A stretch of 64,000 bases of DNA from Chloracidobacterium thermophilum B (GTDB taxonomy: Bacteria; Acidobacteriota; Blastocatellia; Chloracidobacteriales; Chloracidobacteriaceae), in assembly GCF_000226295.1 (NCBI RefSeq), contig NC_016025.1:434001-498000 (forward strand), read 5' to 3'. Under the pieces are notes generated by a model. The model ran no database searches, was not told where the DNA came from, and was given only the letters and a program-made list of their open reading frames with translations. Shown here piece by piece: positions 6,347-64,000 of the stretch; position 1 is the stretch's first letter; the number at the start of each line of letters is the position of its first letter. Both the position numbers and the translations under genes were made by a program.

Positions 6347-7492
6347 ATGGCAACCCCGGCGGAAACCTTCCGGCAGCAGTTTGGCGTCGGCGGCCGGTGT
6401 TTTTCAGCTCCCGGACGGGTCAACCTCATCGGCGAACACGTGGATTACAACGCGGGCATCGTACTGCCGATGGCAATCGGGTTGCGCCTGTGGGTCTGGG
6501 CCAGTCCCCGTTCTGACCGGCAACTGCACGTCATCGCCCACGACCTGGGGGAAACAGACGTTCTTGACCTCGATGCCCCCGGCCGGCGTACCGGCACGTG
6601 GCGTGATTACCTTGCCGGAACGGCCTTTCACCTCGAAGCTGCCGGTTTTCGCCTGACCGGCGCGAACCTGCTTATCACGAGCGACATTCCGACCGGAGCG
6701 GGACTGTCTTCCTCGGCCGCGTTGGAAGTCGCCGTCGGCTTTGCCCTGCTCACTCTGGCCGGACACACAGTTGACCGTCTGGCACTCGCCCGCGCCGGAC
6801 AGGCGGCCGAGCACGATTTCGTCGGAACGCGCTGCGGACTGATGGACCAGTTCGTGGTGGCGCACGGGCGCGCCGGGCATGCCGTCTGGCTGGACTGCCG
6901 TTCCCTGGCTTTTGACTTCATTCCGCTCGACACAAACCAGTGCGCCGTCGTGGTGGTCGACAGCGGCGTGAAGCACCAGTTGGCGGCTTCGGAATACAAC
7001 ACACGCCGGCAGGAATGCGAAGCTGCACTCAGTGTTCTCCAACGCCTGTTTCCCGACCGGACAACATTGCGGGATGTCACCGAAGCCGAACTGGCGCAGG
7101 CGGCCGGGATGCTTTCGGATTCACTCTTGCAACGGGCGCGGCATGTCGTGACCGAGATCGGCCGGGTCACGGCATTTGCCCAAGCGCTGCGCGCCAGCGA
7201 CTGGACCCAGGCCGGGGCGTTGCTGACGGCTTCCCACCGGTCACTTTCGGAAGACTATGCCGTGAGTTGCCCGGAACTCGATGCGCTGGTGGCGGCCGCC
7301 CGGCAGATTCCCGGCTGTTACGGTGCGCGGCTGACCGGCGGCGGGTTTGGTGGCTGTACGGTCAACCTCGTCGCGCCGGAAGCCCTGGATGCCTTTTTGC
7401 GTGAAGTCCCACGGGCCTATGCCCAACACACCGGCGGCACGGCCCGGATGTGGGTCGTCCAACCGGCCGCTGGCGTCGGCGAAATGGACTGA
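6347..7492 (+). CDS. galK: Galactokinase
   Basis: 381 aa GHMP kinase. The galactokinase signature PGRVNLIGEHVDYNAG is near the N-terminus. The ATP-binding GHMP loop IPTGAGLSSSAALEVA and the C-terminal GARLTGGGFGGCTVNLV follow in order. The enzyme phosphorylates D-galactose at C1, the first committed Leloir step. The start codon follows the SDR stop directly, so expression depends on upstream translation. No galT or galE is in the window. A hairpin with a T-rich tail lies just after the stop. Confidence 0.93.
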   Translation: MATPAETFRQQFGVGGRCFSAPGRVNLIGEHVDYNAGIVLPMAIGLRLWVWASPRSDRQLHVIAHDLGETDVLDLDAPGRRTGTWRDYLAGTAFHLEAAGFRLTGANLLITSDIPTGAGLSSSAALEVAVGFALLTLAGHTVDRLALARAGQAAEHDFVGTRCGLMDQFVVAHGRAGHAVWLDCRSLAFDFIPLDTNQCAVVVVDSGVKHQLAASEYNTRRQECEAALSVLQRLFPDRTTLRDVTEAELAQAAGMLSDSLLQRARHVVTEIGRVTAFAQALRASDWTQAGALLTASHRSLSEDYAVSCPELDALVAAARQIPGCYGARLTGGGFGGCTVNLVAPEALDAFLREVPRAYAQHTGGTARMWVVQPAAGVGEMD

Positions 7493-13000: not shown

Positions 13001-13182
13001 TGATTCCGGCAGCGCGCGCCGTCGGAATCGGCTCGGATGTCCAGCGTCCGCTGGCGACCGTCGTCGTGGGCGGTCTCTTTTCGGCCCTGATTCTGACGCT
13101 GCTGGCTCTGCCCAGCCTGTATGCTGTTCTCGTCGCCGAGGAGAAGCCGCCACTTCCCGAAACCACAGTGCCGCCCGCCTGA
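10087..13182 (+). CDS. czcA: CzcA-type heavy-metal RND efflux pump
   Basis: 1031 aa, normal for RND permeases, with 12 expected membrane helices in two halves. TM4 carries LDFGIIVDGTLVMVEH, in which D392, D398 and E405 match the spacing of CzcA D402, D408 and E415. This is the charge pattern of divalent-cation pumps (Co/Zn/Cd/Ni) and not of the monovalent Cu/Ag CusA type. An in-frame start lies far upstream, but the ATG at 10087 sits after GAGG and begins the canonical MIELPNLALRYR N-terminus. It is in one operon with the channel and adaptor genes. No metal regulator is visible beside it. Confidence 0.9.
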   Translation: MIELPNLALRYRAAVLAAALLLIGAGVWAFQNLKVEAYPDISDTGVVVITQFPGNAAEEVEQQVTIPIERALNNTPKVIGRRSRTIFGLSVVELTFDDGVDDYFARQLVLERLRDAELPEGVQPGLGPLTSGIGEMYRYRLDGDGIPEMKLRELQDWVVLPRLLQVPGVADVATFGGLVKTYRVELDPLKLEKFALTAKQVADAISANNRNAGGGIVDNQQQSLVVRGVGLVRSRQDIERIVIGAFDGVPLFVRDVAQVSIAPALQTGIFGYDDVSGGVEGIVLLRRWENPSDTLAALKEAIAELNTQLAPQGVRLVTVYDRGELVSNTLRTVSRTLIEGLIVVTLVLFFFLGDVRAALLTAITIPLSLLFAFVCLKLAGIPANLLSLGALDFGIIVDGTLVMVEHIVHRLADDRHSRRSVFETVRRAALDIERPVFFSMVILISAYLPLFTMERVEYRLFGPMAFTVCSALLGSLVLSLTLTPVLASYWLTRSVRTWENPVVRWLRQGYAAALEVTLARPWLTVGAAGAIVLVGLGIGLRLGTEFLPQLDEGVIWIRANLPPGISLTESARTANRIRALIREFPEVSGVISQSGRNDDGTDPFGPNRNELLVNLHPYESWTTGRTKAQLVAEMSRRLEASIPGATFNFTQPIIDTSTEMATGSSADLAIILRGPDLKQLRELAKQTLAIVRQIPGAADSSIEQEADQPQLRLRVNREEVARYGINVADVQDLIELAIGGRPVGVVFEGERRFDIVVRYTPEARASTATIGKLLVPTADGGRIPLSQLAEIAVVEGASIIARRENQRQVTVRTNIRGRDQGGFVREAQQAVAAQVNLPEGYAVEWGGQFENLTRARARLTIVLPVTLAIIFGLLFMTFGRARDAGIVLASVPFALVGGLVALWLRNINLSVSAAVGFISLFGVAVMSGVLIVSEINRLREVEGLSVRDAIFTGACQQMRPVLMMLIVALLGMIPAARAVGIGSDVQRPLATVVVGGLFSALILTLLALPSLYAVLVAEEKPPLPETTVPPA

Positions 13183-13226
13183 TGTCCGGCAAGCGCCGCT
13201 GGAGCGGCAACCCGCCGTCTTGCCGC

Positions 13227-25580: not shown

Positions 25581-26279
25581 ATGCCCATTCTGGAGTTTCC
25601 ACCGGTCGAAGAAGCCGATGAACATGGACTGTTGGCGGTGGGGGGCGACCTTCACGTGTCTTCCCTGCTGCTGGCCTACAGCAACGGCATTTTCCCCTGG
25701 CCACACGAAGGCTACCCCATGCTCTGGTTTGCGCCGGCAGAACGGGCCATTCTGGATTTTGACGACTTTCACATCCCCTCCCGCCTGGCGCGTTACCTGA
25801 AAAAGGTCAACTATACCTTCCACATCAACACGGACTTCGCGGCGGTCATCCACGCCTGCCGCACCAGCGTGCGCAAGCGCCAGCAGGGAACCTGGATTAC
25901 ACCGGAAATCGAAGCCGCCTACACGGCGCTCCATGAAGCCGGCCACGCCCACAGCTTTGAGGCGCGTACCCCGGATGGAGAACTTGTTGGCGGCATGTAT
26001 GGCGTCATGATCGGGCGGGCCTTTTCCGGTGAGAGTATGTTCTTCCGCGCACCGCATGCGTCAAAGTTCGTCATTGTGGAAACCGTCGCCTACTTCCGCC
26101 AGCACGGAATGACCTGGTTTGACATCGAAGTGATGACCCCCCACATGGCGTTGTTCGGCGCAAAGGAAATCCCACGGGCCGAATTCATGCGGCGGCTCAA
26201 ACAGGCCATTGCCCAACCGCCCATCCCGTTGCCGCCGCCCAGACGGCGGCGCATACCCCATTCAGCCCTGTTTTCCTGA
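25581..26279 (+). CDS. aat: Leucyl/phenylalanyl-tRNA-protein transferase
   Basis: 232 aa, normal length. The N-terminal GLLAVGGDL, then YSNGIFPWP and MLWFAPAERAIL, and the core GGMYGVMIGRAFSGESMFF are the Aat signatures. The enzyme adds Leu or Phe to proteins with N-terminal Arg or Lys, marking them for ClpS/ClpAP degradation (N-end rule). The neighbouring genes are unrelated and it appears monocistronic. The C-terminal tail is rich in Pro/Arg, beyond the conserved core. Confidence 0.94.
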   Translation: MPILEFPPVEEADEHGLLAVGGDLHVSSLLLAYSNGIFPWPHEGYPMLWFAPAERAILDFDDFHIPSRLARYLKKVNYTFHINTDFAAVIHACRTSVRKRQQGTWITPEIEAAYTALHEAGHAHSFEARTPDGELVGGMYGVMIGRAFSGESMFFRAPHASKFVIVETVAYFRQHGMTWFDIEVMTPHMALFGAKEIPRAEFMRRLKQAIAQPPIPLPPPRRRRIPHSALFS

Positions 26280-26453
26280 GCCATCCACGGCCACGGCTTC
26301 CGGCTTTTCCGGCACAGTCGCGTCACTTCTGAAAGGCAGCCGGAGTCGGCGATCTTTATAACTTGCAAAGACTGTAAAACCTGCGCCATACCTTTGTGAA
26401 AAGGGACAGGCTTCCATTGCCCATACCGGACGGTTTTTCGTAGGGGGAGCAAC

Positions 26454-28709
26454 GTGCTGAAAGCGCCTAAACTGAAATCCGTGCTGTTGACTGCACTTAT
26501 CACTGGATGGCTTCCCCTGGCGATTCTTGCCCAGAAACCGCCAGCCCCACCGGCAGCCCCCGGCACGCCCCCGGCGGATGCCCCCAAGGCAGCGGGGCAG
26601 GAACCGGCGCCAGGTCAGGGAGAAGACGAAGAAGACGTTATTACTCTTGGCACGGAGCTGCTTCAGCTCTACGTCAGTGTCACCGACAAACAGGGCCGCC
26701 CGGTCAACAATCTCCAGCGGGAACACTTTGTGCTTCGGGAGGATGGTAAGCCACAGGACATCGCCTTTTTTTCGGCGGTCGCCAATGGCGTGCTTGCTGA
26801 TGACCCGGAGGCCAGCACTGAACCGGAAAACCGGTTGCGACCGCCGGCCGTGACACCGGAAGGGCGCTATTTTGCGCTCGTTGTAGATGATCTGCACATT
26901 GCGCCGGGCAACTTTTTGCCGTTGCGCAACGCCCTGCTCAACTTTGTCGAAAAAAACATCGTGGAAGGTGATCACCTGCTTGTGTTGTCCACGAGCGGAA
27001 CCTTGGGCTTTCTCCAGCAGATGACCGACGACAGGCGCATCATGCGGCTCGCCATCGAGCGGCTGACGCCACGCAATGAGGCCGTTGACCAGGGCAGCTT
27101 CGGCTTTGGATTCACCATGACGGACTACGAGGCGTTTCTGGTTGAGCGCAATGACCGTCAGACCATTGACTTTCTGACGCAACTGTACATCCGCTCTTCT
27201 CCGGGCACCCCGCCAAACCAGGCTGAAACCCTCGTGCGCGCTTCGGCGCGCAGCCTTGCCCAGCGGACGGAATACCTGACGACCAGCACCCTTGAGACCA
27301 TCCGCGCAGCGGCACTGGCACTCGGCAACTATCCGGGGCGGAAAACGCTTCTCCTTGCCACGGATGGCTTCATCAACGACGAATTCAACCGCAACGGACG
27401 CTTTCGCATCCAGCGGGTACTCGATGCCGCAACCCGTGCTGGTGTTACGGTGTACTCCATCCACAGCGCCGGTCTGGAAGTCGCGGCGGGCTTTGACGCC
27501 AGCCAACCCGGCCGCTTTGATCCGACCGGAATTGGGCTGAGTCTTGCCTCGCAGGCACAACAGGCCCGCCAAGACGCCTTCCGTGAACTGGCCGCAGCCA
27601 CCGGTGGGCTGACCTTTGTCAACACGAATGATCTGTCCGGCGCTTTCAGCAAGGCGGTGGCCGATGCCTCCACCTACTACGCGCTCGCCTACTACCCGGA
27701 CAAAAAGCCGGATGGCCGCTTTCACAAAATCGAAGTCAAACTCAACCTCCCTGGAAGCTTCACCATCCGCACGCAGCAGGGCTTTTTCTCGCCAAGCGAA
27801 AAGTCCATCCAGAAAGCCGCCGAGAAAAAGAAAAAGCAGGACGCCAAACTCAGCCCCGAAGCCCTGGCGGCGCGTGAAGTCAAAGCGGCGCTCGGCGCGC
27901 CGGTGCCACCGCGCGACATCCCTCTGCGGCTGGCCTCGACCTTCGTTTCCAACGATCTCGAAACGAGCTTCTCCCTGGCGTTTCCCCTGAAAAACATTGC
28001 CTTCCGGGATGTCAAGGGGCGGAAGTCCAATACCCTGACGATGGGCTTTGTCGTTTTTGACCTCAACGGCAAGGCGCTGATGGCGCAGGAAGACACTATC
28101 GCGTTGAACATCCTGCCGGAGCGGTTGGCGCTGGCGCAGGCCGGGTGGGGATCGCAGACCAAGTCGCTCAAACTCGCGCCCGGGATGTACAACGTCCGCG
28201 CCGCCATCTATGACCCCATCACGGAGCACCGGGGCGCTGTCAACCGGTGGATTGAGATTCCGAATGTGTCAAAGGCCGGGATGATGCTTTCCGACATCAT
28301 CTTTCTGCAGGTTGCCCAACCGACGGCAACCGAGCCGGGCGACTCCCAGCCGGTGGCGGGACAGGCCCTGCCCCCCAATCTGGCACCCATCAATCAGGCG
28401 GTGCGCCGCTATCCGGCCGGGGCGCAACTCGTGTTCGTCGTCACGGCCCACAACGTGCCCAAGGGAAAACCAACGGCCGGAAAGTCCAATCTGGCCTTTC
28501 AGATTCAGATTTTCCGTGACAAGGAAGCCGTTTATGTCAGTCCTCTGCAACGTACACAGTCTCCGCCCAACGCGGACGGCACCCTGACCTATGCCGGACA
28601 GGTCTCCCTTGAAGGGCTGGCCGCTGGTCAATACCGGCTGAAACTGGTAGCGTACGAGGAAACAACCAAAAAAACAGCAGTCCAGTCGCAAGACTTCACT
28701 ATTCACTGA
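26454..28709 (+). CDS. Acidobacterial VWFA-related secreted protein
   Basis: 751 aa starting with GTG after a strong GGGGGAG site. It has a signal peptide ending near ILAQ and a Pro/Ala-rich linker. A domain typical of acidobacterial VWFA-related proteins follows (LYVSVTDKQGRPVNNLQREHFVLREDGKPQDI, split here by VTDKQGRPV and FVLREDG). The von Willebrand A-like domain is next (FALVVDDLHIAPGNF, then TLLLATDGF and GVTVYSIHSAGLEV). A long C-terminal beta-rich region ends at YEETTKKTAVQSQDF. It probably binds other exported proteins or matrix; no enzymatic site is seen. A hairpin follows the stop. Confidence 0.82.
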   Translation: MLKAPKLKSVLLTALITGWLPLAILAQKPPAPPAAPGTPPADAPKAAGQEPAPGQGEDEEDVITLGTELLQLYVSVTDKQGRPVNNLQREHFVLREDGKPQDIAFFSAVANGVLADDPEASTEPENRLRPPAVTPEGRYFALVVDDLHIAPGNFLPLRNALLNFVEKNIVEGDHLLVLSTSGTLGFLQQMTDDRRIMRLAIERLTPRNEAVDQGSFGFGFTMTDYEAFLVERNDRQTIDFLTQLYIRSSPGTPPNQAETLVRASARSLAQRTEYLTTSTLETIRAAALALGNYPGRKTLLLATDGFINDEFNRNGRFRIQRVLDAATRAGVTVYSIHSAGLEVAAGFDASQPGRFDPTGIGLSLASQAQQARQDAFRELAAATGGLTFVNTNDLSGAFSKAVADASTYYALAYYPDKKPDGRFHKIEVKLNLPGSFTIRTQQGFFSPSEKSIQKAAEKKKKQDAKLSPEALAAREVKAALGAPVPPRDIPLRLASTFVSNDLETSFSLAFPLKNIAFRDVKGRKSNTLTMGFVVFDLNGKALMAQEDTIALNILPERLALAQAGWGSQTKSLKLAPGMYNVRAAIYDPITEHRGAVNRWIEIPNVSKAGMMLSDIIFLQVAQPTATEPGDSQPVAGQALPPNLAPINQAVRRYPAGAQLVFVVTAHNVPKGKPTAGKSNLAFQIQIFRDKEAVYVSPLQRTQSPPNADGTLTYAGQVSLEGLAAGQYRLKLVAYEETTKKTAVQSQDFTIH

Positions 28710-28755
28710 GTCGTGGGGGCCGACCGGCTGTGGAGGCCGGCTGTGTCAGGGCAGG

Positions 28756-28797
28756 GCCTGCGGCACATCCACCGGCTGCGCCGCAGGCGTGCGGTTT
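28756..28797 (+). terminator. Possible terminator after the VWFA-related gene
   Basis: Nine-bp arms GCCTGCGGC (28756-28764) and GCCGCAGGC (28780-28788) with a 15-nt loop are followed after a few bases by a TTTT run. The tract is short, so read-through into the next gene is possible. Confidence 0.4.
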
Positions 28798-28832
28798 TCA
28801 TCGTTTCCCATTCACGAAAGGAGCCTGTATCC

Positions 28833-29759
28833 ATGGGCAAAGTATTCCGGCCATCACTTGCCGTGCTGTTCACCTGGGCCGTGATCCCGGGGCTGCCGTG
28901 GGTGATCACGGCGCAGACGGCAAAGAAAGAGAAACCTCCGGCAGCCGCGTCATCGGCTCCGGCGGATCCCCTCGTCAACCTGGAACAGCCAAGGACCTCG
29001 ATACCACCCGAAATGCTTTCGGCTCCACCATCCGGGGTTCGCGTCATCCTCAGTCAATTCGCGCTGGCCCTGGACACACTCCCGCCAACCGAACAGCTTC
29101 CGATGTTTTTGGCCGCCCCCAGTCCCCTTCGCTACTGGACGTTTTCCCTCCTCGATCCGAATGTCCGGCGTCGGTTGCTTGAACTCATGGAAGCCGAGGC
29201 CATTCGCCAGTGGCCGGCTCAGGAAAAGGTCATCAGGAGCTTTCTCACCAAGACTCAGGCCGCCTACGACCGCCAGCGGATGCCGGAAGACACCCCTGAA
29301 CAGTTCAAACTGAAAAACGAAGTCGGGTTGCGCTACCTTGCCGAGCTTTCGCCAGAAGAGAGAGCCATTGGCCGTCAGATGCACACCTATTTCTTTGGGC
29401 CCAGCATTCTTCTCCGCTATCAGGGAAGAGTGTGGATTCGGCCGGAGGCGGTGCCGCAAATCGAAGCCTTTCTGAAACGTGTTCCCGCACTGCGCGAATA
29501 CAAAACGGACGAACTCTTTGTCGTATTTTCCGGGAAAACTTCCTCGCCCGTGTTCTTTCAGGACTACGAAACCGATGGTCTTTTCGTGGGTGTGCGTGGG
29601 CCAACCTGCAACTGCGCCCTGGATGTGGATTGTGTTCCGGGAACCTTCTGCCAGACGACCAAGCCACCCTACCCGACTGACTTTGGCACCACCTGTCACA
29701 TGTTTGGCGTACGGCTTCCCTGTTCCGGCTTTTGCACACCAGGGAAGCCACGCCGCTGA
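28833..29759 (+). CDS. Secreted protein with fulvocin C-like Cys-rich tail
   Basis: 308 aa with a signal peptide (FRPSLAVLFTWAVIPGLPW...TAQ). The ATG at 28833 is chosen because AAAGGAG lies just upstream. The middle 200 residues are helical with no recognised domain. The last 45 residues hold seven Cys in the order CNC, then VDCVPGTFC, then GTTC and PCSGFC. This spacing resembles the mature bacteriocin fulvocin C of Myxococcus (CxC, about six residues, C, five residues ending in TF, C). The protein may therefore be a fulvocin C-related precursor or a member of that wider family. No immunity, protease or exporter gene is adjacent. The bacteriocin role is inference. Confidence 0.6.
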   Translation: MGKVFRPSLAVLFTWAVIPGLPWVITAQTAKKEKPPAAASSAPADPLVNLEQPRTSIPPEMLSAPPSGVRVILSQFALALDTLPPTEQLPMFLAAPSPLRYWTFSLLDPNVRRRLLELMEAEAIRQWPAQEKVIRSFLTKTQAAYDRQRMPEDTPEQFKLKNEVGLRYLAELSPEERAIGRQMHTYFFGPSILLRYQGRVWIRPEAVPQIEAFLKRVPALREYKTDELFVVFSGKTSSPVFFQDYETDGLFVGVRGPTCNCALDVDCVPGTFCQTTKPPYPTDFGTTCHMFGVRLPCSGFCTPGKPRR

Positions 29760-30024
29760 CATCCCCGGAAGGATGTGCCCGAAAGGACGGCTGGACTCCG
29801 GGTTGCATAGTGACGCCCAGGATCAGCCACGCTTATTCAGCAGCGGCGAAGGGCTGACGGTATTCATCGGGTTCGAGAAAAGGACAGGGAGCAAACCTGA
29901 TGAGCCAGGGTTCGCAACCCCAGAAAATCTCCACGGCAAAGCTGCCGGCCGACACGCGCTCGTACCTGACGCCGCTCCGCCTGCCCTTCGCGGCGCGCGG
30001 AGCTTCAGTCCGTTGGTTGTACGC
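29760..30024. other. No recognisable gene
   Basis: Several open frames cross this stretch, but none shows a family motif, a convincing ribosome site or matching codon use. The stretch lies between the fulvocin-like gene and the IscB remnant and may be decayed DNA from the same mobile unit. Confidence 0.5.
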
Positions 30025-30317
30025 TCAGATCGCTACCGATGGCAGCGAGAGCGGTGCGTATCGCTCGTCCTGCGTAACCGGTAAGGTCTGTGCCAGACCT
30101 GATTTCATTGTCCACGAATATCCATACCCGTCTGCACGCTGGAGCAGTGTGCAACATCGGTGATGGATGCCTTGTACCAGCCCGGTTGCGGACTGGATGT
30201 TGAAACTGCCGCTGGCTCGAATGGCGACACGACCCAGGTAGTTGCCTGCCTTTTTGCCGGTCGTCACGACCACACGCACCAGGTCCCCGGCCCAAACCCA
30301 GCCGAACATCAGGCGGA
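30025..30317 (-). pseudogene. Truncated IscB-type nuclease, C-terminal remnant
   Basis: The minus-strand frame reads KVRLMFGWVWAGDLVRVV, then GKKAGNYLGRVAIRASGSFNI, here split as GKKAGNYLGRVAI and RASGSFNIQ. It then reads GLVQGIHH and LLQRADGYGYS. This order is what I know from the C-terminal ends of IscB proteins, the RNA-guided HNH/RuvC nucleases ancestral to Cas9. The similarity runs up to the first CRISPR repeat, where an in-frame stop lies in the repeat itself, so the RuvC, bridge-helix and HNH parts are absent. The last 25-30 codons have no similarity and may be read-through. The remnant cannot be an active nuclease. Confidence 0.68.
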
Positions 30318-30805
30318 CTTTAATTCAAGGGGTCTTTTTCAAGACCCATGACGCGTTGGTCAGGGCACGCAGCGTGCCGCGCTTGAACTCGTCCTTTAAT
30401 TCAAGGGGTCTTTTTCAAGACCCATGACCAGAGGGAGCGGAGAAGGCCAACCGTGAACGGAGTTCCTTTAATTCAAGGGGTCTTTTTCAAGACCCATGAC
30501 GGGCACAGCCGCTAAAATCCTGTCTCTGATGGCCTCTCCCTTTAATTCAATTCAAGGGGTCTTTTTCAAGACCCATGACGTAATTCGTTTCTACACTATT
30601 CTATACGCCCTGTCAAGTAACCTTTAATTCAAGGGGTCTTTTTCAAGACCCATGACGATGCGGATACAGTTTCAGATAACCAACCACCGACTGCCTTTAA
30701 TTCAAGGGGTCTTTTTCAAGACCCATGACCGGGCTGTCAAGGTAAATGAAGTCGCTGAATGTCCACTTTAATTCAATTCAAGGGGTCTTTTTCAAGACCC
30801 ATGAC
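30318..30805 (-). CRISPR. Orphan CRISPR array, seven repeats and six spacers
   Basis: Seven copies of a 35-bp repeat start at 30318, 30394, 30466, 30540, 30622, 30695 and 30766. The repeat begins CTTTAATTCAAGGGG and ends AAGACCCATGAC on the plus strand. Spacers are unique and measure 41, 37, 39, 42, 38 and 36 bp. The repeat contains a perfect 7-bp stem, GGGTCTT/AAGACCC, with a GAAA loop on the minus strand. Repeats 4 and 7 are 40 bp because a 5-bp ATTCA unit is duplicated. The minus strand is the likelier transcript, since there the repeat starts with G and ends AAAG. No cas gene is in the window. Confidence 0.9.
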
Positions 30806-30834
30806 TCCGGCCGCGAGGGCGGTTTCAATTTCAC

Positions 30835-30990
30835 TTGACATACTCCCCTGCCTAAAGGCAGGGGATTCTTGTTCTTGGTTCTGCGAGCGCACTTACTTCA
30901 TCAGGTTGCCCCTCCAAAGCAGCGGTGCATCTCTCCCCAAGCGTTCCCTCTTTCGAGGCAGTTCCCTTTTGCCCAAAGGTACTGTTTTGC
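30835..30990 (-). ncRNA. Possible TnpB guide (omega/reRNA) region
   Basis: In TnpB elements the guide RNA scaffold spans the 3' end of tnpB and the right end, and the guide is the flanking DNA next to it. Here that region includes the strong right-end hairpin. The guide of this copy would begin GTGAAATTGAAACCGCC, read towards the CRISPR array. The 5' limit is an estimate and no promoter or experiment supports it. Confidence 0.3.
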
Positions 30991-32116
30991 CACTCCATTC
31001 CCAAGATGCTTAGTCCCTTCTTGAGGATGTTCAAAGCCGCATTCCGGTCTCTGTCTGATTCAAATCCACATTGAGGACAACTATGGGTTCTGGTGGCCAG
31101 GGTTTTTACTACCATACGCCCACAGTTACTACAGTCCTGTGTGGTGTACTGCGGCGGTACGCTGACGACTGCCTTGTCCCACACCTTGCCGTAGTAGTCC
31201 AGCCACGCAGTGAATTGAGACCAGCCAGCATCATGAATGGATTTGGCAAGATGATGATTTTTGACCAGGTTCTTCACCTGCAAGTCTTCGTACACCACGA
31301 CATCGTGAGATGCCACCACGCACCGGGCTAACTTAATCACCCAGTCTTTACGCTGGCGTTGGACTTTCAGATGTGCTTTGCCCAGTCTTTTCTTTTGCTT
31401 GTGGTAGTTCCTGGATTGAGGTTTGCCCCCTTTTCCTGAACTTCCTGCTCAACCTGCGCTGGTGGCCGCTTTAGCCGCTTCTCTGCTTTCCGCAGATACT
31501 TGGGACACTCCACAGGGTTGCCGTTCTGGTCGGTGTAGAAAGCTTTCAAGCCCAAGTCAATGCCAATCACATTGCCTGTGTATTCTCCCTGCTCCTTGCG
31601 CTCCACACCCAAACAGAACTGGGCATAGTACCCATCTGCCCTGCGTATCACCCGCACCCGATTGATTTTGGATTCAAGAATCAACCGTCTTGCTTCACCA
31701 TTGCAGTACAGAGCAAACGAGCCAGCATTGAAGCCATCGGTGAACGAGATAGTCATCCCATCTTCTGACAGCTTCCAGCCCGATACCTTGTATTCCACAG
31801 AACGGCAATGCTTCTTAAATTTGGGATACCCTTTCTTGACCGCCTTGTTTTTGCAGTTGGTATAGAAACGGGAGATGGAAGCCCAAGCCCGTTCTGCACT
31901 TGCCTGCCTTGCCGCTGAGTTTAACTTCCTGACAAAGTCAAACTCTTTGGCCAGGTCTTTGCAGTGGGCATAGAGAACAGCTTTGTTTACGCCCTTGTTG
32001 TCCATCCAGTACCGCACACATTTGTTTCTGACAAACTGTGCGGTACGGATGGCTTCATCCAGAGCCTGATACTGCTCTGCTGTCCCGTTGAGTAGCTTGG
32101 CTTCCATGACTCTCAT
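30852..32116 (-). pseudogene. tnpB: tnpB with two frameshifts
   Basis: The 5' frame (from the ATG at 32116) encodes the N-terminal and first RuvC part (VIGIDLGLKAFYTDQNG holds the catalytic Asp) up to KYLRKAEKRLKR. Near 31465 one extra base shifts the frame. A second frame then reads HQRRLSRKFRKRG until the G-run near 31425-31430, where another base shifts it. The third frame reads SRNYHKQKKRLGKAHLK to the end, with VVYEDLQVKNL, the zinc finger CSNCG...CPQCG and DRDRNAALNIL. Removing two bases gives 421 codons. The protein is broken as sequenced. Homopolymer sequencing error is possible, at least at the G-run. Confidence 0.85.
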
Positions 32117-32212
32117 ACTGCTATTTTATCACAGGTTTGGCTTGATAAAACAGCGTGCGCCTTATATCCCTGCCCTAAAGTGCAGGGCTTTACGGCGTTT
32201 TTTCGGTAAACA

Positions 32213-32297
32213 CGCCTGATGTTGGGGATGTCAACCATGTTGGCTGCGTCCCACAATAAAGCCTTCGACTTCAGTCGAGGGCTGTTTACATCAGGCG
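32213..32297. repeat. Small inverted-repeat segment with central hairpin
   Basis: CGCCTGATGT at 32213-32222 is matched by ACATCAGGCG at 32288-32297. Between them a stem CCTTCGAC-TTCA-GTCGAGGG (32262-32281, one G-T pair) resembles the end hairpins of IS200/IS605-type elements. The segment borders the left end of the TnpB element and may be what is left of another element or of its insertion site. The remaining bases up to 32399 hold no gene. Confidence 0.35.
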
Positions 32298-32399
32298 GCA
32301 CTGCACGTTTTCCAGACGCCGAACCACAGCACAGACAGTAACCGCCACGTCCTTCCTTCCTGCACGGCGTTTTTTCAGCCGTTCACCCGGCGGCAGAGG

Positions 32400-35300
32400 C
32401 TATCGCCGCCGCCGCAGGGCAAACGGGGTGATAACGGCAAACAGCGCCAGCCATCCCAGCGGCCACCACGAAACCGACTTCGAGGGTGGCGGCTGGGCTT
32501 CAGCGTACCAGCCTTTGGTCGGGCCTTTCGGAACCTCGTTGGACACCGTGTAGATCGTCCCGTCAGGCTTGAGGTAAAGCCGCCGCATTTCTTCGAGATT
32601 GAAGGGCCGCGCCCCCCGCCGTCCGAAGACGACGAGCTGGTGACCGCTTTCATCCACGCCCCGGTCACGGTCCAGCCCCTTCGACACCGCCAGCGATTCA
32701 CCCTTGGTGGGATGCGTCGCAATCAGCCGTGGCTCCGGCCGCGGGCTGAAACCACCGTTGGTCGCCATGGTCTCCGGTGAGGTGAGCTGTACGACGCGCA
32801 GGCCGTTCTTACCGTCGGCAACGTAGGCAAAGGCGCTGGCATTCGTCATCCCCACCTTCACATCGCGGGCATCGTTGATGACGCCGCCAGCCGTAAAGAT
32901 TTGGTCAATTTTCGGCTGTTCGGGCCGTTCCACATCCACAATGACCAACCCCTGCTTGCCGCCCGCAATGTAGGCGTAGGTGCGCGCCACATAAACCTGA
33001 TGGGCGTCCTCCAGCGGTATCGTCGCGCCCGGCACGAGACGGGCTTTTTCCGGCAGCGTGATGTCCACGACGTGCATGCCAACGGCATCCGTGACGAAGG
33101 CATACCGGAACTGAATGGCAATCCCCTTGGGCTTCCTGAAGCCTTCGACAATCGAGACCACCTTCGGCGCAGCGGCATTGGCCACATTGACGATGACCAG
33201 TCCCCGGTCACACAGAATGTAGGCATGGTCGCCAGCCACGGTGAGATTTTCCGCTCCGTTGAGCAGACCGTTCGGGTTGAAGGTGTAGTCCTTCTTGAGA
33301 AAGTTGTTCGTCGGGTCGCCATCGAGCAGGGTGGCGGCGTTGATCATGACCAGCCCTTCTTCCCGGTCGCTGACGTAGAGATACGCATAGACCGGGCTGA
33401 TGGGCTGTTCCTCATTTTCGGGAAACCGCTGCCGGGTCGGGTCAACGCCCAACGTCGTGGGCGAAGCAATAGCTGTCGCGTATTTCGTCTTGACATAAAA
33501 CCGCTGCCCCAGCGGTGACACCGGCGCGGTCGTGATGCGCTCGGAGAAGTCCTTGTTGTCAATGTTGGCGATGTCATAGATGTGGACGCCATGCTCGCCT
33601 TCAGCCACATAGAGATACTCGCCCCGCATTTGCAGGCTCAGGGCATGGCCGTGGTGGTGGTAATGCTCGTGCAGCTTGTCGCCACCCGCCTTGTGCTTTT
33701 TGTATTCCTTCGGGTAGGCAATTTCGTGCAGCGTGCTGCCGATGACGGCCTGTGGCTCGCTGCGTTCCGTTGCCACTACAGCCGAGATGCCGTGTTTGCC
33801 TTCAGCAACGTAGATGTAGCGCCCCATGAAGTTGACATAGTTCGTCCCCAGCAGCAGCAACTGCGCCATGATGGCGTTGTTGTCGTTATCCTTGGAAATG
33901 TGACAATCAGTGCAGCCTTTGGTCTCCCGCGCGCGTACCGTGTGAGGAACGTGCGTGTTCATGGCTTGTCCTGAATAGCCCTCGGAGGAAATCGTCTGCT
34001 GCTGCGAGTACAGCCACAGCCGGTTGGCATTCTGGGAACCGACGATGACAGCTGAAGATGAACGCACTGGCGCAATGCGGTTGCCGGTGGCGGTGCCGTC
34101 AATACCGAGCATAAACACATCATCCCGCAGCACCTGGAAGTTGTAGGAAGTCCAGTTGCGCGTCTCCGGGCCGCCTTCGTTGTGATTCATCGGGCGCTTC
34201 CGGTTGGCTGTCATCGGCAGGTGACAGCCAAAACAGCTCGTCATCCAGGCCGAATGACATGCGTAGCACGTCATTCGCTGGTCGCTGTGGGCAAGCTGGC
34301 TGTCCTTGCCTTCATCGGGCTTGGCCGCCGGGTCCCACACATTGCCTTTCATAAGCAGCTTGGCGTAGTGCGACTTTTCGCTGTAGTGCTCGTGGCCGGG
34401 CGTGACCGTATCTTTGGTCTGCACTACCACCCAGAATTTCTCCGGGTCCACCATCGAGTACTGAATAACCTTGCCTTTGTAGGGGCCGGCTGTCGGGATT
34501 TCGAGCACCGATGCCTGCCGGAAACCACGCGCGCGGCGTTTTGAGGGGTCGCGCTCATAAACGGTACGGGTTTTGTAGCCATCCAGCGAGTTGCTGCCGC
34601 CCGGCGCTTCCGCATCCGTCTTGTTACGCGCCGTGAACTTGCCTGTCACCAGTGCGTCATCGGCGCTCTTTTTGCGTGCGCCCCCGGCAAAGCCAGTCGT
34701 CAGCGACTTTGGATTGGCATAGGCGTAAATCGAGCCGTGGCAATCCTGGCAACTGATCTCAATGGCAGCGCGTGGCTCGCCATAAAGGAGCCGGTCGCCA
34801 TGACCATCCTGCGAAAAGTGGCAGTCCACACAGTGCATGCCCTTCTCCAGATGGATGTCCTTCAGGTGAACCGGCACGCCGCTGCGCACAGTGGTTTTGT
34901 TGACCTCAACGCCTTCGGACGTGTATGCCACGGCTTGGCGCAAGGCCTCCGGCGTCACATTCGGCACAGGCTGGTCATTTTCATCCAGGTAGCGACCCTT
35001 GCGGTCCTGCTTGAAAACGGCCCGGTAAATCCAGCCGTGACCGTGGAAATCGGCAAATTGGGTGCGCTTGGCTTTGGGGTTGACCTCAGTCCAGACTTCA
35101 CCCAGAAAAGCCCGGTCGCCCCACTTGCCGCGCTGGGCTGAGCCTTCCGGGTTGTGGCGGGCAATGTTTTCCAGTTCTTCGTCGCTGCGCTTGAGCGGCG
35201 TTTCCGGGTACATCGGGCGGCCATCGGTTTCGTTATCCCACCACATAAAGCCCTGGTAGGTCGTGAGCATGTTCGTCCCCGGATGCATGTGGCAGACCAT

Positions 35301-36614
35301 GCACTGGCTGGTCGGGATGGCGTTGGTCAGGACGTGGCGCACCGGATGGCCCGGCTCATCCTTCGGAATCGTGGGATCGGCGGTTTTCGTCGTGCCGCGA
35401 TTCGTATGGGCATAGTCAAATTTGGTCGAGGAATGCACCGTCGAGCGGTCGTTGGCGTAGGGGGTGTGACACGCCGTGCAGCCGCTGGAACGGTAGTCGC
35501 CGGGATGGTCGTTGGTGCCCATCAGGGAGGTCAGCGGATCGAGCAGGCGCGTCTTTTGCAGTCCCAGGAACACCGGGTCAGTACGCAGCCCCGTCCCAAA
35601 CCCGCGTGGGCTGAGCTTGACTTCGGGCAACCCGGCCAGGTCGGCCTCCGGGTTCGGATTCCCCACTTCGGATTGCTTCCGGCCGCCGCGCTCAAAGACG
35701 CGCAGGATGTTGCCCGGCTGCGTGACTTCCCACCGGGGCAGCGGCGTGATGAACGGGATGATGCCGCGATACTTCCGTTCGGAAGGCGTTGGCGGCTTGA
35801 GGGACATCAGCGCCTGGGGCGCGCCGTCCTGGTTGTAGCTTTCACCCCACCGGGTGTCCTTGTAGGGGTACGCCCCGTTGTTGTAGAGCGCCGCTCCCCA
35901 CAGCATCGCCCCGTGGGTCATCATGCTGGTCTTGACCTTGTCCACGATGAACGCCTGCCCGTCCAGCCGCGCCTCCTTGTTGTGACATTCGCCGCAGGTG
36001 ATGTCCGCCACCCGCAGGTCGCCCGGATTGACGAACCGCACGAAGTCCAGATTTTCCTTGAGCAGGGCCGTGTAGGACAGCTCCGGGTTGGCGGAGTTGG
36101 CCGAGCCGTCCTTGCGCTTCCACAGCTTCGGGTTGGTGGGCTGCGGATGGGCTTCGTTCTGGGCTTTGATGTACGCCGGCTGGCCCTTCTCACTCCCGGC
36201 AGGCTTCATGACATCGCCGTTTCCGCCGTGGCAGTACACACAGGTGATGTTGCGTCCGATGTTGAGGGCGCTGCCGTCGGGCGCAATGTGGGCCGTTTTG
36301 TAACCGCCTTCGTAGCCGGTGTGGCAGCTTATACAACCGCTGTCGTTGCCGTTCTGAAGCCGCCAGTCATCCTCGGTCTTGTCTTTCGCTGCCCGGTAAA
36401 TGCGCGCGCGTGCCGTAGCCGGGTCAACCGGCGCGGAAGGTTTGGATGCGCCTGCCCCCGCGGCCGGCCCATCCTGCGCGGAAGTCTCCACAAACGGAGC
36501 GGCGGTATCGCTGCCGGCCACCGGACGAAACGCCGGCAGGAGACTGAAACCAATGAAGGCCGTACTGACGGCGGCACAAAGGGTCACAACTTTGATTCTG
36601 AAGGCAATCGCCAT
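32400..36614 (-). CDS. Decaheme cytochrome c with LVIVD beta-propeller
   Basis: About 1404 aa with an N-terminal signal or anchor helix. Ten CxxCH heme sites are visible: CISCH, CVYCH, CGECH, CTACH, CMVCH, CVDCH, CQDCH, CYACH, CFGCH and CTDCH, all in the first two thirds. The last third holds LVIVD-type propeller blades ([46 protein letters not shown]). The C-terminus has one membrane helix followed by Arg residues ([15 protein letters not shown]). It follows a porin gene in the same direction, which suggests a porin-cytochrome conduit for electrons across the outer membrane. The ATG at 36614 is preferred over the GTG at 36620 because of GGAAGGG spacing. Confidence 0.82.
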
Positions 36615-36677
36615 GGTCACATACCCTTCCGTCCGGGAGACAGGCTTGGGGAGGGCCTGTCACACAGACGCATCGCA

Positions 36678-38564
36678 TCAGAACGTAAAGATGGCTTTGG
36701 CGTAGAGCGAAAACAGGAAGCGTGACTGTGCACCACAGTTCAGCCCTGAACAGTTTGACGTGAAAATGTCCTTGAAACCATCGAGCGGATTCATGACCGA
36801 AAAGCCGCCCTTGACGATCATGTTTTCACTCAGCAGCGGGCGGTACACGATGCCCACCCCGTAATCAATCCCGACGTTGTTGCGGATGCGACGCTGGAAC
36901 GTCAGCAACTGCAACGATTCCGTGTGGTGGAAACGGAGGTAGTTCAGATTCGCCAGCAGCTTGAGCTTGGGCGTCAGATTGGCTTCGTACCCCAGGTTGG
37001 CCACGATGATGCCCGGATTGACGAAATTCGCCTGCCCCTGCAGCTTGCTGCTCCGCAGACTCGGAATGAGGCTGCCCTGGGTCACGAGCGCCACGCCCGC
37101 CCGCGTCAAACGGATTTCCTGGCTGTTCCAGAAGCTGTTTTCGCCGCCGGCAAAAAACTGATTGTCGAGAATCGAGTCGAAGCCGCGCGCCACCCGGTCG
37201 GTCGGGTTTGCGTCGCCGGAGGAAAAGAAGCCCGACACCTGAAACCGCTGCCAGTCGCGGTCATAGGACAACTCCAGCGCCGCCAACTGGGCATTGATGC
37301 GCGTCGGACGCCCGGCAATCGGTTGCAGCGAGTCGCGCCCCAGCACCTGGTAAAACGCATGGTTGATGTTGAGGCGGCGGAAGTGACCGTTGCCGGTCCA
37401 GCCGATATAGCCTGCCTTGACGCTGTGCGGCGTGACGGGACCAACCTGTGCCGGGCGCACCAGAAAGCGGTTCTGGTCGAATTTGATGCTCGGCTGATCG
37501 TCGTTGTAGTGGACGCTCAACTGCATCGTGTAGCCGGGCTTGATGAAATCCTGCCGGTAGAGATTGGCCACCCACACCCGCTGATTTCGCTGGTCAAAGG
37601 TGTTGATGCCGCTGTTGGTGTCTTTTTCCAGCATGTAGAAAAACGCCGCGTTGAACTGCCACTTGTTGTCGCGGAAATTCCCGAACAGGCGCGCGCCCAG
37701 GTTGAAGTCATCAAAAATCAACCCGCGGAAGTCGCTGTTGAACTGTTGGACGCCCACCCGCAGCGAGGTGGAATCAAAAAACGGACTGTGCCCGCCACGG
37801 CTGCCGCGCCCCCGCAGAAACGGAAACAGCCTGGGGGTGTCACCCAGCCGGACTTCGGCAAAGGCTTCCTGGAAGCCGATGTGCGTGTCAAACCGCGTCG
37901 TCCCCTTGCGGACATCCCGGTTGACAATGCCGTTTTCCCGTACGGCCAGATAGTTCAGATTGAACACCGGCGTGAACTTGATGCGCCAGTCAGGTGGCTT
38001 GAAGGCTGTATCGCCGTGGAACAGCTCAACCGAGGTGACAAAGTTCTGCTGGTTGAGGAACTGTCCGCCGCGTCCGAAAAACTCGGCTGCGCCGGGCCGG
38101 CGGGCGTTGATGTCCTGCGGCAGAGGCGTCCGCCGTCCATCCACGAAGGTGATGCTCTCGAAGGTCAGGACGAGAAAGGTGTGCTGCCCCAGGATGGGAT
38201 AGTCGCCTTTGAGGACATTGAGCCGGTACGGATTGAGAATACTGCCCTTTTCGTAGCGGTTCCATTCCGGGAAGCCAATCCGCCACCGGTCCTCGATGGG
38301 CACGCCCACGTCGCTGTCGCGGCGCTCACTGCGGGGCTCGACGCTGCTGGGCCCTTCCGCGCCGGGCACGGTCAACTCGCGCAGTTCGGGAATGGCGTCG
38401 GCTGTGCGCGGCACACGCGCCCCATCCTGCCGGGACTGGGCTTCCTGGACGACAGGAGCCAGCGCCGCCTCGGAAACCGTTGTCAGATTTTGGGCCGGAA
38501 CGGAACAGCCCAGCCACATCCCCCACCCAACGATGAGCGCGACCAAACGGCGAGTCTGGTTCAT
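36678..38564 (-). CDS. Outer-membrane beta-barrel porin, cytochrome partner
   Basis: 628 aa. The signal peptide RRLVALIVGWGMWLGCSVPAQ follows the ATG at 38564, which has AGGAG upstream. The mature part is rich in alternating beta strands (VFNLNYLAVRENGI, FFYMLEKDTNSG, LSVHYNDDQPSIKF) and ends with Phe (AKAIFTF), the usual outer-membrane barrel end. No plug or TonB box is seen. It is 63 bp upstream of the ten-heme cytochrome and co-directional, a layout like the porin plus cytochrome pairs of metal-respiring bacteria. The substrate and electron path are unproven. Confidence 0.72.
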   Translation of the reverse strand: MNQTRRLVALIVGWGMWLGCSVPAQNLTTVSEAALAPVVQEAQSRQDGARVPRTADAIPELRELTVPGAEGPSSVEPRSERRDSDVGVPIEDRWRIGFPEWNRYEKGSILNPYRLNVLKGDYPILGQHTFLVLTFESITFVDGRRTPLPQDINARRPGAAEFFGRGGQFLNQQNFVTSVELFHGDTAFKPPDWRIKFTPVFNLNYLAVRENGIVNRDVRKGTTRFDTHIGFQEAFAEVRLGDTPRLFPFLRGRGSRGGHSPFFDSTSLRVGVQQFNSDFRGLIFDDFNLGARLFGNFRDNKWQFNAAFFYMLEKDTNSGINTFDQRNQRVWVANLYRQDFIKPGYTMQLSVHYNDDQPSIKFDQNRFLVRPAQVGPVTPHSVKAGYIGWTGNGHFRRLNINHAFYQVLGRDSLQPIAGRPTRINAQLAALELSYDRDWQRFQVSGFFSSGDANPTDRVARGFDSILDNQFFAGGENSFWNSQEIRLTRAGVALVTQGSLIPSLRSSKLQGQANFVNPGIIVANLGYEANLTPKLKLLANLNYLRFHHTESLQLLTFQRRIRNNVGIDYGVGIVYRPLLSENMIVKGGFSVMNPLDGFKDIFTSNCSGLNCGAQSRFLFSLYAKAIFTF

Positions 38565-43689: not shown

Positions 43690-44289
43690 ATGTCCAGTCT
43701 GCCGCACATCCGTCTGACGCCGGACGAATACTTGGCCGCCGAACGCTGGGCGACGCACAAAAGCGAGTACGTCGCCGGCGAGGTATTTGCCATGTCGGGC
43801 GCAACCCTCCGGCACTCGCTCATCGCCACCAACATTGCGGCAGAGCTGCGGCAACGCCTCAAGGGGCGCGACTGTACAGTTCACGCTTCGGATTTACGGG
43901 TCGGGACTCCGGCCGGCAACTACTTCTACCCGGATGTGGTCGTGGTGTGTGGCGAACCTGTTTACGCGGATGACCACCGGGACACGATTCTCAACCCCAT
44001 CCTCATCGTTGAAGTGCTTTCGGATTCGACGCAGGACTACGACCGGGGCGGCAAGTTTGCCGAGTACCGCCGGCTCGCGTCGTTGCAGGAATACCTCGTG
44101 GTGGCCCAGACCGCGCCCTGTGTCGAACACCACACGCGCCAGGCCGACGGGTGCTGGCTGCTTCACGAGACAAGCGACCTGACCGCCGTGCTGACACTGG
44201 CTTCCATTGGCTGCCAGTTGCCGCTGGCGGAGATATACGACAAAGTTACCTTCGCTGTCGCCAATCCAGTCGAAGGGGCAACCCCATGA
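43690..44289 (+). CDS. Uma2-family (DUF820) putative endonuclease
   Basis: 199 aa. The Uma2 core shows the start LTPDEYLAAE, then YVAGEVFAMSGAT, a PD-(D/E)xK strand YPDVVVVCG, then LIVEVLSDSTQDYDRGGKFAEYRRL. This is a common, often multicopy, family of restriction-like nucleases in cyanobacteria and acidobacteria, with unknown targets. Its end overlaps the start of the isocitrate dehydrogenase gene by four bases, which is odd for a metabolic gene. Confidence 0.85.
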   Translation: MSSLPHIRLTPDEYLAAERWATHKSEYVAGEVFAMSGATLRHSLIATNIAAELRQRLKGRDCTVHASDLRVGTPAGNYFYPDVVVVCGEPVYADDHRDTILNPILIVEVLSDSTQDYDRGGKFAEYRRLASLQEYLVVAQTAPCVEHHTRQADGCWLLHETSDLTAVLTLASIGCQLPLAEIYDKVTFAVANPVEGATP

Positions 44290-63373: not shown

Positions 63374-63484
63374 TGGTGATGAATTCCCGGAGAAATCAAC
63401 GCAGGCAGCCGCGGGGGTAGGGCACGAGGGACTATACGCAACTCGCCGGAGCGCGCCAAGTCACCCGTGCGTGAGAAAGTTTAC

Positions 63485-64000
63485 CGAAAAAACGCCGTAA
63501 AGCCCTGCACTTTAGGGCAGGGATATAAGGCGCACGCTGTTTTATCAAGCCAAACCTGTGATAAAATAGCAGTATGAGAGTCATGGAAGCCAAGCTACTC
63601 AACGGGACAGCAGAGCAGTATCAGGCTCTGGATGAAGCCATCCGTACCGCACAGTTTGTCAGAAACAAATGTGTGCGGTACTGGATGGACAACAAGAGCG
63701 TCAACAAAGCTGTTCTCTATGCCCACTGCAAAGACCTGGCCAAAGAGTTTGACTTTGCCAGGAAGTTAAACTCAGCGGCAAGGCAGGCAAGTGCAGAGCG
63801 AGCTTGGGCTTCCATTTCCCGGTTCCATACCAACTGCAGAAACAAGGCGGTCAGGAAAGGGTATCCCAAGTTCAAGAAGCATTGCCGTTCTGTGGAATAC
63901 AAGGTATCTGGCTGGAAGCTGTCAGGGGATGGGATGACTATCTCGTTCACCGATGGCTTCAATGCTGGTGCTTTTGCTCTGTACTGCAATGGTGAGGCAA
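63485..64000 (+). mobile_element. IS200/IS605-type TnpB element, copy 2, cut by window edge
   Basis: The left end begins after TTAC (63481-63484), as in copy 1, and the next 100 bp up to the tnpB ATG are identical to copy 1 read on its coding strand. The insertion site is 111 bp from hemH. The two copies face away from each other and enclose about 31 kb. The right end lies outside. Confidence 0.85.
63574..64000 (+). CDS. tnpB: TnpB N-terminal part, continues past the window
   Basis: 142 codons are visible with no stop. They match copy 1 apart from about nine residues, for example NKSVNKA against NKGVNKA and CRNKAVRKG against CKNKAVKKG. The region with the two frameshifts of copy 1 lies past the window, so whether this copy is intact is not known. 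TnpB is the RNA-guided DNA nuclease of these elements. Confidence 0.87.
   Translation, partial: MRVMEAKLLNGTAEQYQALDEAIRTAQFVRNKCVRYWMDNKSVNKAVLYAHCKDLAKEFDFARKLNSAARQASAERAWASISRFHTNCRNKAVRKGYPKFKKHCRSVEYKVSGWKLSGDGMTISFTDGFNAGAFALYCNGEA

What the first reader, a model, noticed from the sequence alone, without database searches (positions are those of the whole stretch)
30025..30805. IscB C-terminus runs straight into a CRISPR array
A minus-strand frame with IscB-like C-terminal motifs (GDLVRVV, then GRVAIRASGSFNI and LLQRADGYGYS) ends at the exact base where the first CRISPR repeat begins. The rest of the nuclease is absent. IscB is the ancestor-like relative of Cas9, and CRISPR-linked IscB loci are rare. 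The array lies where the IscB guide RNA and N-terminus would be. Either an IscB-CRISPR locus has decayed, or recombination has fused an array to an IscB fragment.
Basis: partly seen in the sequence, partly recalled or inferred. Interest (0 to 1): 0.8.

Follow-up and report, generated by a model that had tools for sequence, protein, structure and literature searches.

The report
IscB scrap beside orphan CRISPR fragment
A scrap of a transposon-borne IscB nuclease gene lies beside a stranded piece of CRISPR array most likely because both were trapped in one insertion hot spot, not because they work together; the array is still of interest because a sister species carries a CRISPR memory that matches this array's own repeat.

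Summary
The observation largely holds. Window 30109-30291 (minus) encodes about 61 codons from the end of an IscB, 181 of 183 bases identical to an intact 445-aa IscB on the other contig of this genome. Some 20-27 bp further on, a 7-repeat CRISPR array begins (30318-30805).

The idea of a working IscB-CRISPR locus is not supported. The stretch has no HEARO (omega) RNA and no catalytic domain; 40 window ORFs gave no cas hit; none of 10 IscB loci examined in this genome and relatives has an array beside it; the repeat is no more like the IscB guide RNA than shuffled repeats. In sister species G004 the same site holds an intact IscB of another lineage and TnpB elements, and no array. I read the site as an IS200/IS605-type hot spot where a truncated IscB was fused by rearrangement to a leaderless array fragment that abuts a decayed TnpB element.

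The notable part is incidental. G004's type I-G array holds a spacer made of 31 nt of this array's repeat, exact, plus 4 nt of an unknown spacer, with a type I-G PAM (TTN) at all seven repeats here. One species' CRISPR appears to have recorded another array's repeat.

The parts
30025..30309 (-). Open frame named in the finding (94 aa); only its middle is IscB
   Evidence: ORF list; match to intact IscB over residues 6-68 of 94
30109..30291 (-). IscB 3'-end remnant, about 61 codons; no HNH domain, most of RuvC absent, no HEARO RNA
   Evidence: 181 of 183 nt identical to the intact IscB of this genome and to its counterpart in G004; no HEARO RNA in 29500-32500
30292..30317 (.). Junction sequence between IscB remnant and first repeat, possibly a cut-off spacer (inference)
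   Evidence: No IscB identity; best outside match 21 of 22 nt in an unrelated gene of G016, treated as chance
30318..30805 (-). CRISPR array: repeats at 30318-30352, 30394-30428, 30466-30500, 30540-30579, 30622-30656, 30695-30729, 30766-30805; those at 30540 and 30766 carry a 5-nt internal duplication; strand inferred
   Evidence: orientation inferred from likeness to I-G repeats in this sense
30806..30834 (.). 29-nt stretch between last repeat and the TnpB element, possibly a cut-off spacer; too short to hold an ordinary leader (inference)
   Evidence: Coordinates
30835..32210 (-). IS200/IS605-type TnpB element; tnpB split into two frames (31367-32116 and 30852-31340)
   Evidence: 94% identical copies in G004; OrfB_IS605 / TnpB and Cas12f1-like TNB matches
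30306..30316 (+). ACATCAGGCGG, first copy of an 11-bp direct repeat that brackets array plus TnpB; possible trace of the rearrangement
   Evidence: 3 matches in the window, 0.04 expected; a third copy lies at 13175-13185 on the minus strand
32288..32298 (+). Second copy of the 11-bp direct repeat, inside flank shared with G004

Best explanation
This is a composite scar in an insertion hot spot of IS200/IS605-type elements. An IscB element inserted or recombined in at this site, then lost everything but about 183 bp near its 3' end. A fragment of a CRISPR array, without leader or cas genes and perhaps from a type I-G-like system, came to lie 18-27 bp from the scrap through a DNA rearrangement. 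A TnpB element abuts the other end of the array. Shown: the sequence identities, the junction coordinates, the different contents of the same site in G004, no HEARO RNA at the site, no cas hit among 40 window ORFs. Inferred: the order of events, the joining mechanism (end joining or short homology), and that the array no longer grows, having no recognisable leader and no cas genes with its repeat. If the array acts at all, the likeliest way is crRNA processing in trans by the genome's own type I-G Csb2 (Cas5-Cas6 fusion). The IscB scrap has no role.
For: Same site in G004: flanks 97.2% over window 26271-30108 and 95.2% over 32175-37997, but with an intact IscB (71% aa to the other lineage), a TnpB of the window's kind in opposite orientation, and another TnpB; no repeats or array there. 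The IscB boundary on the left flank is within a base or two of the same place in both genomes. In G005 the two outer flanking genes are 239 bp apart. An intact IscB with HEARO RNA exists on this genome's other contig; none of 10 IscB loci has an array in the DNA held, with positive control. No HEARO in window 29500-32500. No cas hit at E 1e-10 in 40 ORFs. The stretches between array and IscB / TnpB are 26 and 29 nt, against spacers of 36-42 nt.
Against: No genome with the intermediate states was found, so the order of events is unproven. G005 also lacks the neighbouring 348-aa ORF (28713-29759), so it is not an exact empty site, and in G002 and G003 the left flank was not found in the DNA held. 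The array's source is unknown. The 11-bp direct repeat would fit one recombination event but also occurs at 13175. The link to type I-G rests on hairpin position and modest similarity.
Confidence: 0.85

Rival explanations
1. A decayed CRISPR-associated IscB locus: an IscB once used RNAs from this array and later lost its N-terminal part.
For: Juxtaposition, 18-27 bp apart. CRISPR-linked IscBs exist in the literature (recalled; the term appears in the listing for PMC12991159, which I did not read). A 10-mer of the repeat occurs in the guide-RNA region of two IscB elements.
Against: 0 of 10 IscB loci with an array; the same-lineage intact IscB has its own HEARO RNA; repeat within shuffled controls, 0.08 to 0.97 of shuffles reaching the score; G004 has IscB at the site without array.
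Confidence: 0.04
2. The array is a live stand-alone array placed at the site by chance and served in trans by the chromosomal type I-G machinery; the neighbouring transposons are irrelevant.
For: Repeats are nearly uniform, 5 of 7 identical over 35 nt; hairpin ends 12 nt from the 3' end as in the genome's I-G repeat, and similarity to I-G repeats is in one orientation only; type I-G Csb2 cuts 4 nt beyond the hairpin leaving an 8-nt handle (PMC9638904 passage).
Against: No room for an ordinary leader (29 nt to the TnpB element); the I-G locus is about 519 kb away with a different repeat; no protospacer found with one 20-mer from each of six spacers in viral contigs.
Confidence: 0.25
3. Assembly error: the fusion does not exist in the organism.
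For: IscB and TnpB are multi-copy here, a usual source of misjoins.
Against: The scrap has bases that neither intact copy has (30155, 30291), and its left junction is nearly the same as the IscB junction in an independent genome. The genome is in 2 contigs, 99.99% complete.
Confidence: 0.03

Closest known systems
IscB / HEARO (OMEGA) elements of the IS200/IS605 kind
   Same: The scrap is nearly identical to the 3' end of a typical IscB gene.
   Different: Only about 61 codons remain; no catalytic HNH domain, no HEARO RNA, right-end hairpin missing.
CRISPR-associated IscB loci (recalled from Altae-Tran et al. 2021, not read here)
   Same: An array lies next to IscB sequence.
   Different: No intact IscB, no guide RNA, no array at other IscB loci examined, no likeness of repeat to guide RNA.
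Orphan CRISPR arrays without cas genes
   Same: Short array, no cas hit in the window ORFs scanned, repeat unlike those of the genome's two cas-linked arrays. A survey of plasmids found orphan arrays shorter on average and possibly remnants (PMC9071438 passages).
   Different: Both ends run into transposon sequence within 26-29 nt, and a sister species has a spacer that matches its repeat.
Type I-G CRISPR-Cas (Csb2, Cas8g, Cas3g, Cas4-Cas1)
   Same: Same hairpin-to-end distance as the genus I-G repeat and one-sided similarity.
   Different: Different repeat sequence; no I-G genes linked to it.

Membership tests
CRISPR-associated IscB locus | IscB gene with HNH and RuvC nuclease parts | tested here: not met
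   Only residues matching about the last 61-63 aa of a 445-aa IscB
CRISPR-associated IscB locus | Guide (HEARO/omega) RNA at the locus | tested here: not met
   None in window 29500-32500 at E up to 1; positive for L010 and L060; also none above the cut-off at L058, whose IscB left end is cut by a TnpB
CRISPR-associated IscB locus | Array kept beside IscB in relatives | tested here: not met
   0 of 10 IscB loci; several hold only about 1.5 kb per side or partial genes, and further IscB places were not fetched
CRISPR-associated IscB locus | Repeat related to the guide RNA | tested here: not met
   Local alignment within shuffled repeats for four elements: 0.106, 0.082, 0.612, 0.972 of 500 shuffles reach the score
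CRISPR array | Three or more near-identical repeats with unlike spacers of even length | tested here: met
   7 repeats, 6 spacers of 36-42 nt
CRISPR array | Hairpin-forming repeat | tested here: met
   7-bp stem, -12.7 kcal/mol
CRISPR array | Leader next to the array | tested here: inconclusive
   26 nt and 29 nt before IscB and TnpB sequence begins; no leader model was run
CRISPR array | Spacers match mobile DNA | tested here: not met
   One 20-mer from each of 6 spacers against viral contigs: 1 hit, chance (23 of 37 nt); whole array against phages and plasmids: none
Type I-G array | Repeat with hairpin ending 12 nt before its 3' end (4 nt plus 8-nt handle) | tested here: met
   Folds; processing rule from a passage of PMC9638904. 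A weak criterion by itself
Type I-G array | Linked cas3, csb2, cas8g, cas4-cas1 | tested here: not met
   No cas hit in 40 of 42 window ORFs of 130 aa or more; the other two are the TnpB pieces; the genome's I-G genes lie about 519 kb away
IS200/IS605-type TnpB element | TnpB with RuvC / zinc-ribbon region | tested here: met
   Cas12f1-like TNB 74 bits for 30852-31340; TnpB family 96.7 bits for 31367-32116, just under the cut-off of 100; frame is split

The most novel reading that the evidence does not exclude
CRISPR against CRISPR: a sister species' type I-G system took a spacer from an array with this repeat. The spacer is 31 nt of repeat plus 4 nt of a spacer not present here, with a TTN PAM, so its crRNA would be aimed at every repeat of any such array at once. 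Arrays of this kind would be multi-site targets, which could explain why the repeat was found in the genus only as this leaderless fragment and as that spacer.
Probability: 0.45. Interest if true: 0.65.

Novelty: new member of a known kind. Interest (0 to 1): 0.38.

Why it matters
As an IscB-CRISPR link it would be a false lead for the origin of Cas9, and showing it to be an accident of a hot spot saves effort. The incidental spacer may matter: in one large plasmid survey CRISPR arrays were masked to avoid false spacer matches (PMC9071438, passage), so immunity of one CRISPR-Cas system against another's repeat could be overlooked by such pipelines. Here the case is unusually clear: 31 exact nt, a fitting PAM, unlike repeats, two species.

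Tried and rejected
Fragment alone against Pfam, PDB sequences and NCBIfam: nothing significant. Identity came from the intact copies.

Repeat derived from IscB guide RNA: a shared 10-mer in two of four elements is within controls (plain letter shuffles of the repeat).

Junction stretch resembling DNA of G016 (21 of 22 nt, L045): lies inside an unrelated 943-aa gene; taken as chance.

Spacer 2 hit in viral contig IMGVR_UViG_3300033417_000006: only the 20 letters asked for match, 23 of 37 in all; chance.

HgcC RNA at 30822-30914: 20.6 bits against a gathering score of 50; ignored.

Stem of one G004 spacer elsewhere: only itself among 8 genomes, none in viral contigs.

Literature: searches for spacers matching CRISPR repeats, CRISPR in Chloracidobacterium, IscB with arrays and orphan arrays with TnpB showed no paper on this case in their listings; titles and abstract starts only. 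Passages were read in PMC8730458, PMC9755519, PMC9638904 and PMC9071438, no whole paper.

Full report
Where it is. The window is C2:434001-498000 of a two-contig, 3,695,372-bp genome. The contig sizes recall Chloracidobacterium thermophilum B; that name is from memory, not from a call. Six same-genus genomes are held, G001 to G006.

Observation. The minus frame 30025-30309 contains an IscB C-terminus. Its match in the same genome is an intact 445-aa IscB on the other contig (C1:1094223-1095557), 94% over 63 aa, E 4.5e-36; that gene scores 457 bits with the NCBIfam IscB model, cut-off 175. In DNA, 181 of 183 bases of 30109-30291 agree with it, and the same 181 agree with its counterpart in G004; those two intact elements are 98.8% alike over 1722 bp. 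The array has seven repeats, five of 35 nt and two of 40 nt with a 5-nt internal duplication, and six spacers of 36-42 nt. Within 3 mismatches the repeat occurs nowhere else in the genome.

What the site is. In G004 the flanks are kept: 97.2% over window 26271-30108, 95.2% over 32175-37997. Between them lie an intact IscB of another lineage (71% aa), a TnpB element of the window's kind in the opposite orientation with its frame also broken, and a second, unlike TnpB of 383 aa. Between these two TnpBs I read by eye a further TnpB zinc-ribbon scrap (L058 about 6750-6930; no search was run on it). There is no array. The IscB boundary on the left flank falls within a base or two of the same place in both genomes. 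In G005 the outer flanking genes are 239 bp apart, but G005 also lacks the neighbouring ORF 28713-29759, so it is not an exact empty site. In G002 and G003 only the right flank was found in the DNA held. The site thus collects IS200/IS605-type elements and their broken remains.

Is it a CRISPR-linked IscB? Tests: (a) intact IscB elements L010 and L060 carry HEARO RNA above the gathering score (105 and 101 bits, cut-off 83); L058 does not, its IscB left end being cut by a TnpB; window 29500-32500 has none. (b) 0 of 10 distinct IscB loci show an array in the DNA held, with a positive control; several hold only about 1.5 kb on a side or are partial, and other IscB places were not fetched. (c) Against the guide-RNA regions of four IscB elements the repeat scores within shuffled controls (0.106, 0.082, 0.612, 0.972 of shuffles reach it). 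(d) No cas family at E 1e-10 in 40 of the 42 window ORFs of 130 aa or more, the other two being the TnpB pieces; shorter ORFs were not scanned. The genome's two cas1 genes go with other repeats: an array of about 100 repeats whose Cas1 and Cas7 best match type I-B models, and one of about 51 repeats of type I-G.

The array. Read on the minus strand the repeat is GTCATGGGTCTTGAAAAAGACCCCTTGAATTAAAG. Its main hairpin ends 12 nt before the 3' end, as does that of the genome's I-G repeat (the window repeat may add three outer pairs). Published I-G processing cuts 4 nt beyond the hairpin and leaves an 8-nt handle (PMC9638904, passage). Similarity to the I-G repeat of this genome and to the like repeat of G005 (whose cas genes I did not type) is modest and in this sense only: 0.024 and 0.002 of shuffles reach the score, against 0.763 and 0.124 in reverse. 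Both ends run into transposon sequence after 26 and 29 nt, shorter than any of its spacers. I read it as an internal piece of a longer array without leader; that is inference. No protospacer was found.

The spacer in the sister species. A search for the repeat core in 58 genomes hit one place outside this genome, G004:C2:750390. There it is a spacer, between two copies of another repeat, beside cas4-cas1, cas8g, cas3g and cas56g. Of its 35 nt, 31 equal the window repeat exactly at all seven copies (E 1.8e-12); the other 4 (ACGA in crRNA sense) match none of the sequences that follow the seven repeats here. The triplet before the match is TTT at five repeats and TTC at two, which fits the TTN PAM reported for type I-G (PMC9638904, passage). 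The sense assumes that the leader lies on the cas side, as the degenerate repeats at the far end suggest. Of 455 spacers extracted from eight arrays and compared with 19 fetched stretches, this is the only one that matched another array's repeat; the extraction lost two of six window spacers and two of five in the G004 array. So G004's lineage probably met DNA that carried an array of this kind. Interference is not shown. In G004 the cas4-cas1 frame (525 aa against 581 here) starts about 100 bp from a TnpB insertion and lacks the first 45 positions of the model, so adaptation there may now be impaired.

Where else the repeat occurs. No exact match to two forms of the core in genome contigs of 84,980 species or to one in viral contigs; with up to 3 mismatches in 26 nt, 2 of 396 phylum genomes, this one and G004. 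The collection scans may leave out records very near the window's own genome. No array match in phages or plasmids.

Judgement. The juxtaposition is real but most likely accidental. The IscB half is a dead scrap and the array an orphan fragment. The interest rests on the G004 spacer, which can be tested directly.

Noticed in passing
L059 9381-9415 (G004:C2 about 750381-750415): Spacer of a type I-G array made of 31 exact nt of the window array's repeat plus 4 nt of an unknown spacer, with TTN before the match at all seven repeats.
   Followed up: yes
L059 9124-9527 (G004 type I-G array): Three of its five spacers, those nearest cas, contain perfect stems of 7, 7 and 11 bp (the other two: 2 and 2); among 448 spacers of six other genus arrays 12 reach 7. 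Post hoc, but it hints that hairpin DNA was captured there.
   Followed up: partly
L059 11738-13111: A TnpB element close to the window's lies next to the start of the G004 cas4-cas1 frame, which lacks the first 45 positions of the Cas1g model.
   Followed up: partly
window 63480-64000: A second copy of the TnpB element begins at the window's right end (matches G004 copies at 93-95%).
   Followed up: no
window 30500-32000: G+C falls to 0.48-0.51 across array and TnpB against 0.56-0.63 around them, as expected of acquired DNA.
   Followed up: no
window 43690-44289: ORF matches the PADLOC candidate defence model PDC-S03 (E 9.2e-23); not examined.
   Followed up: no
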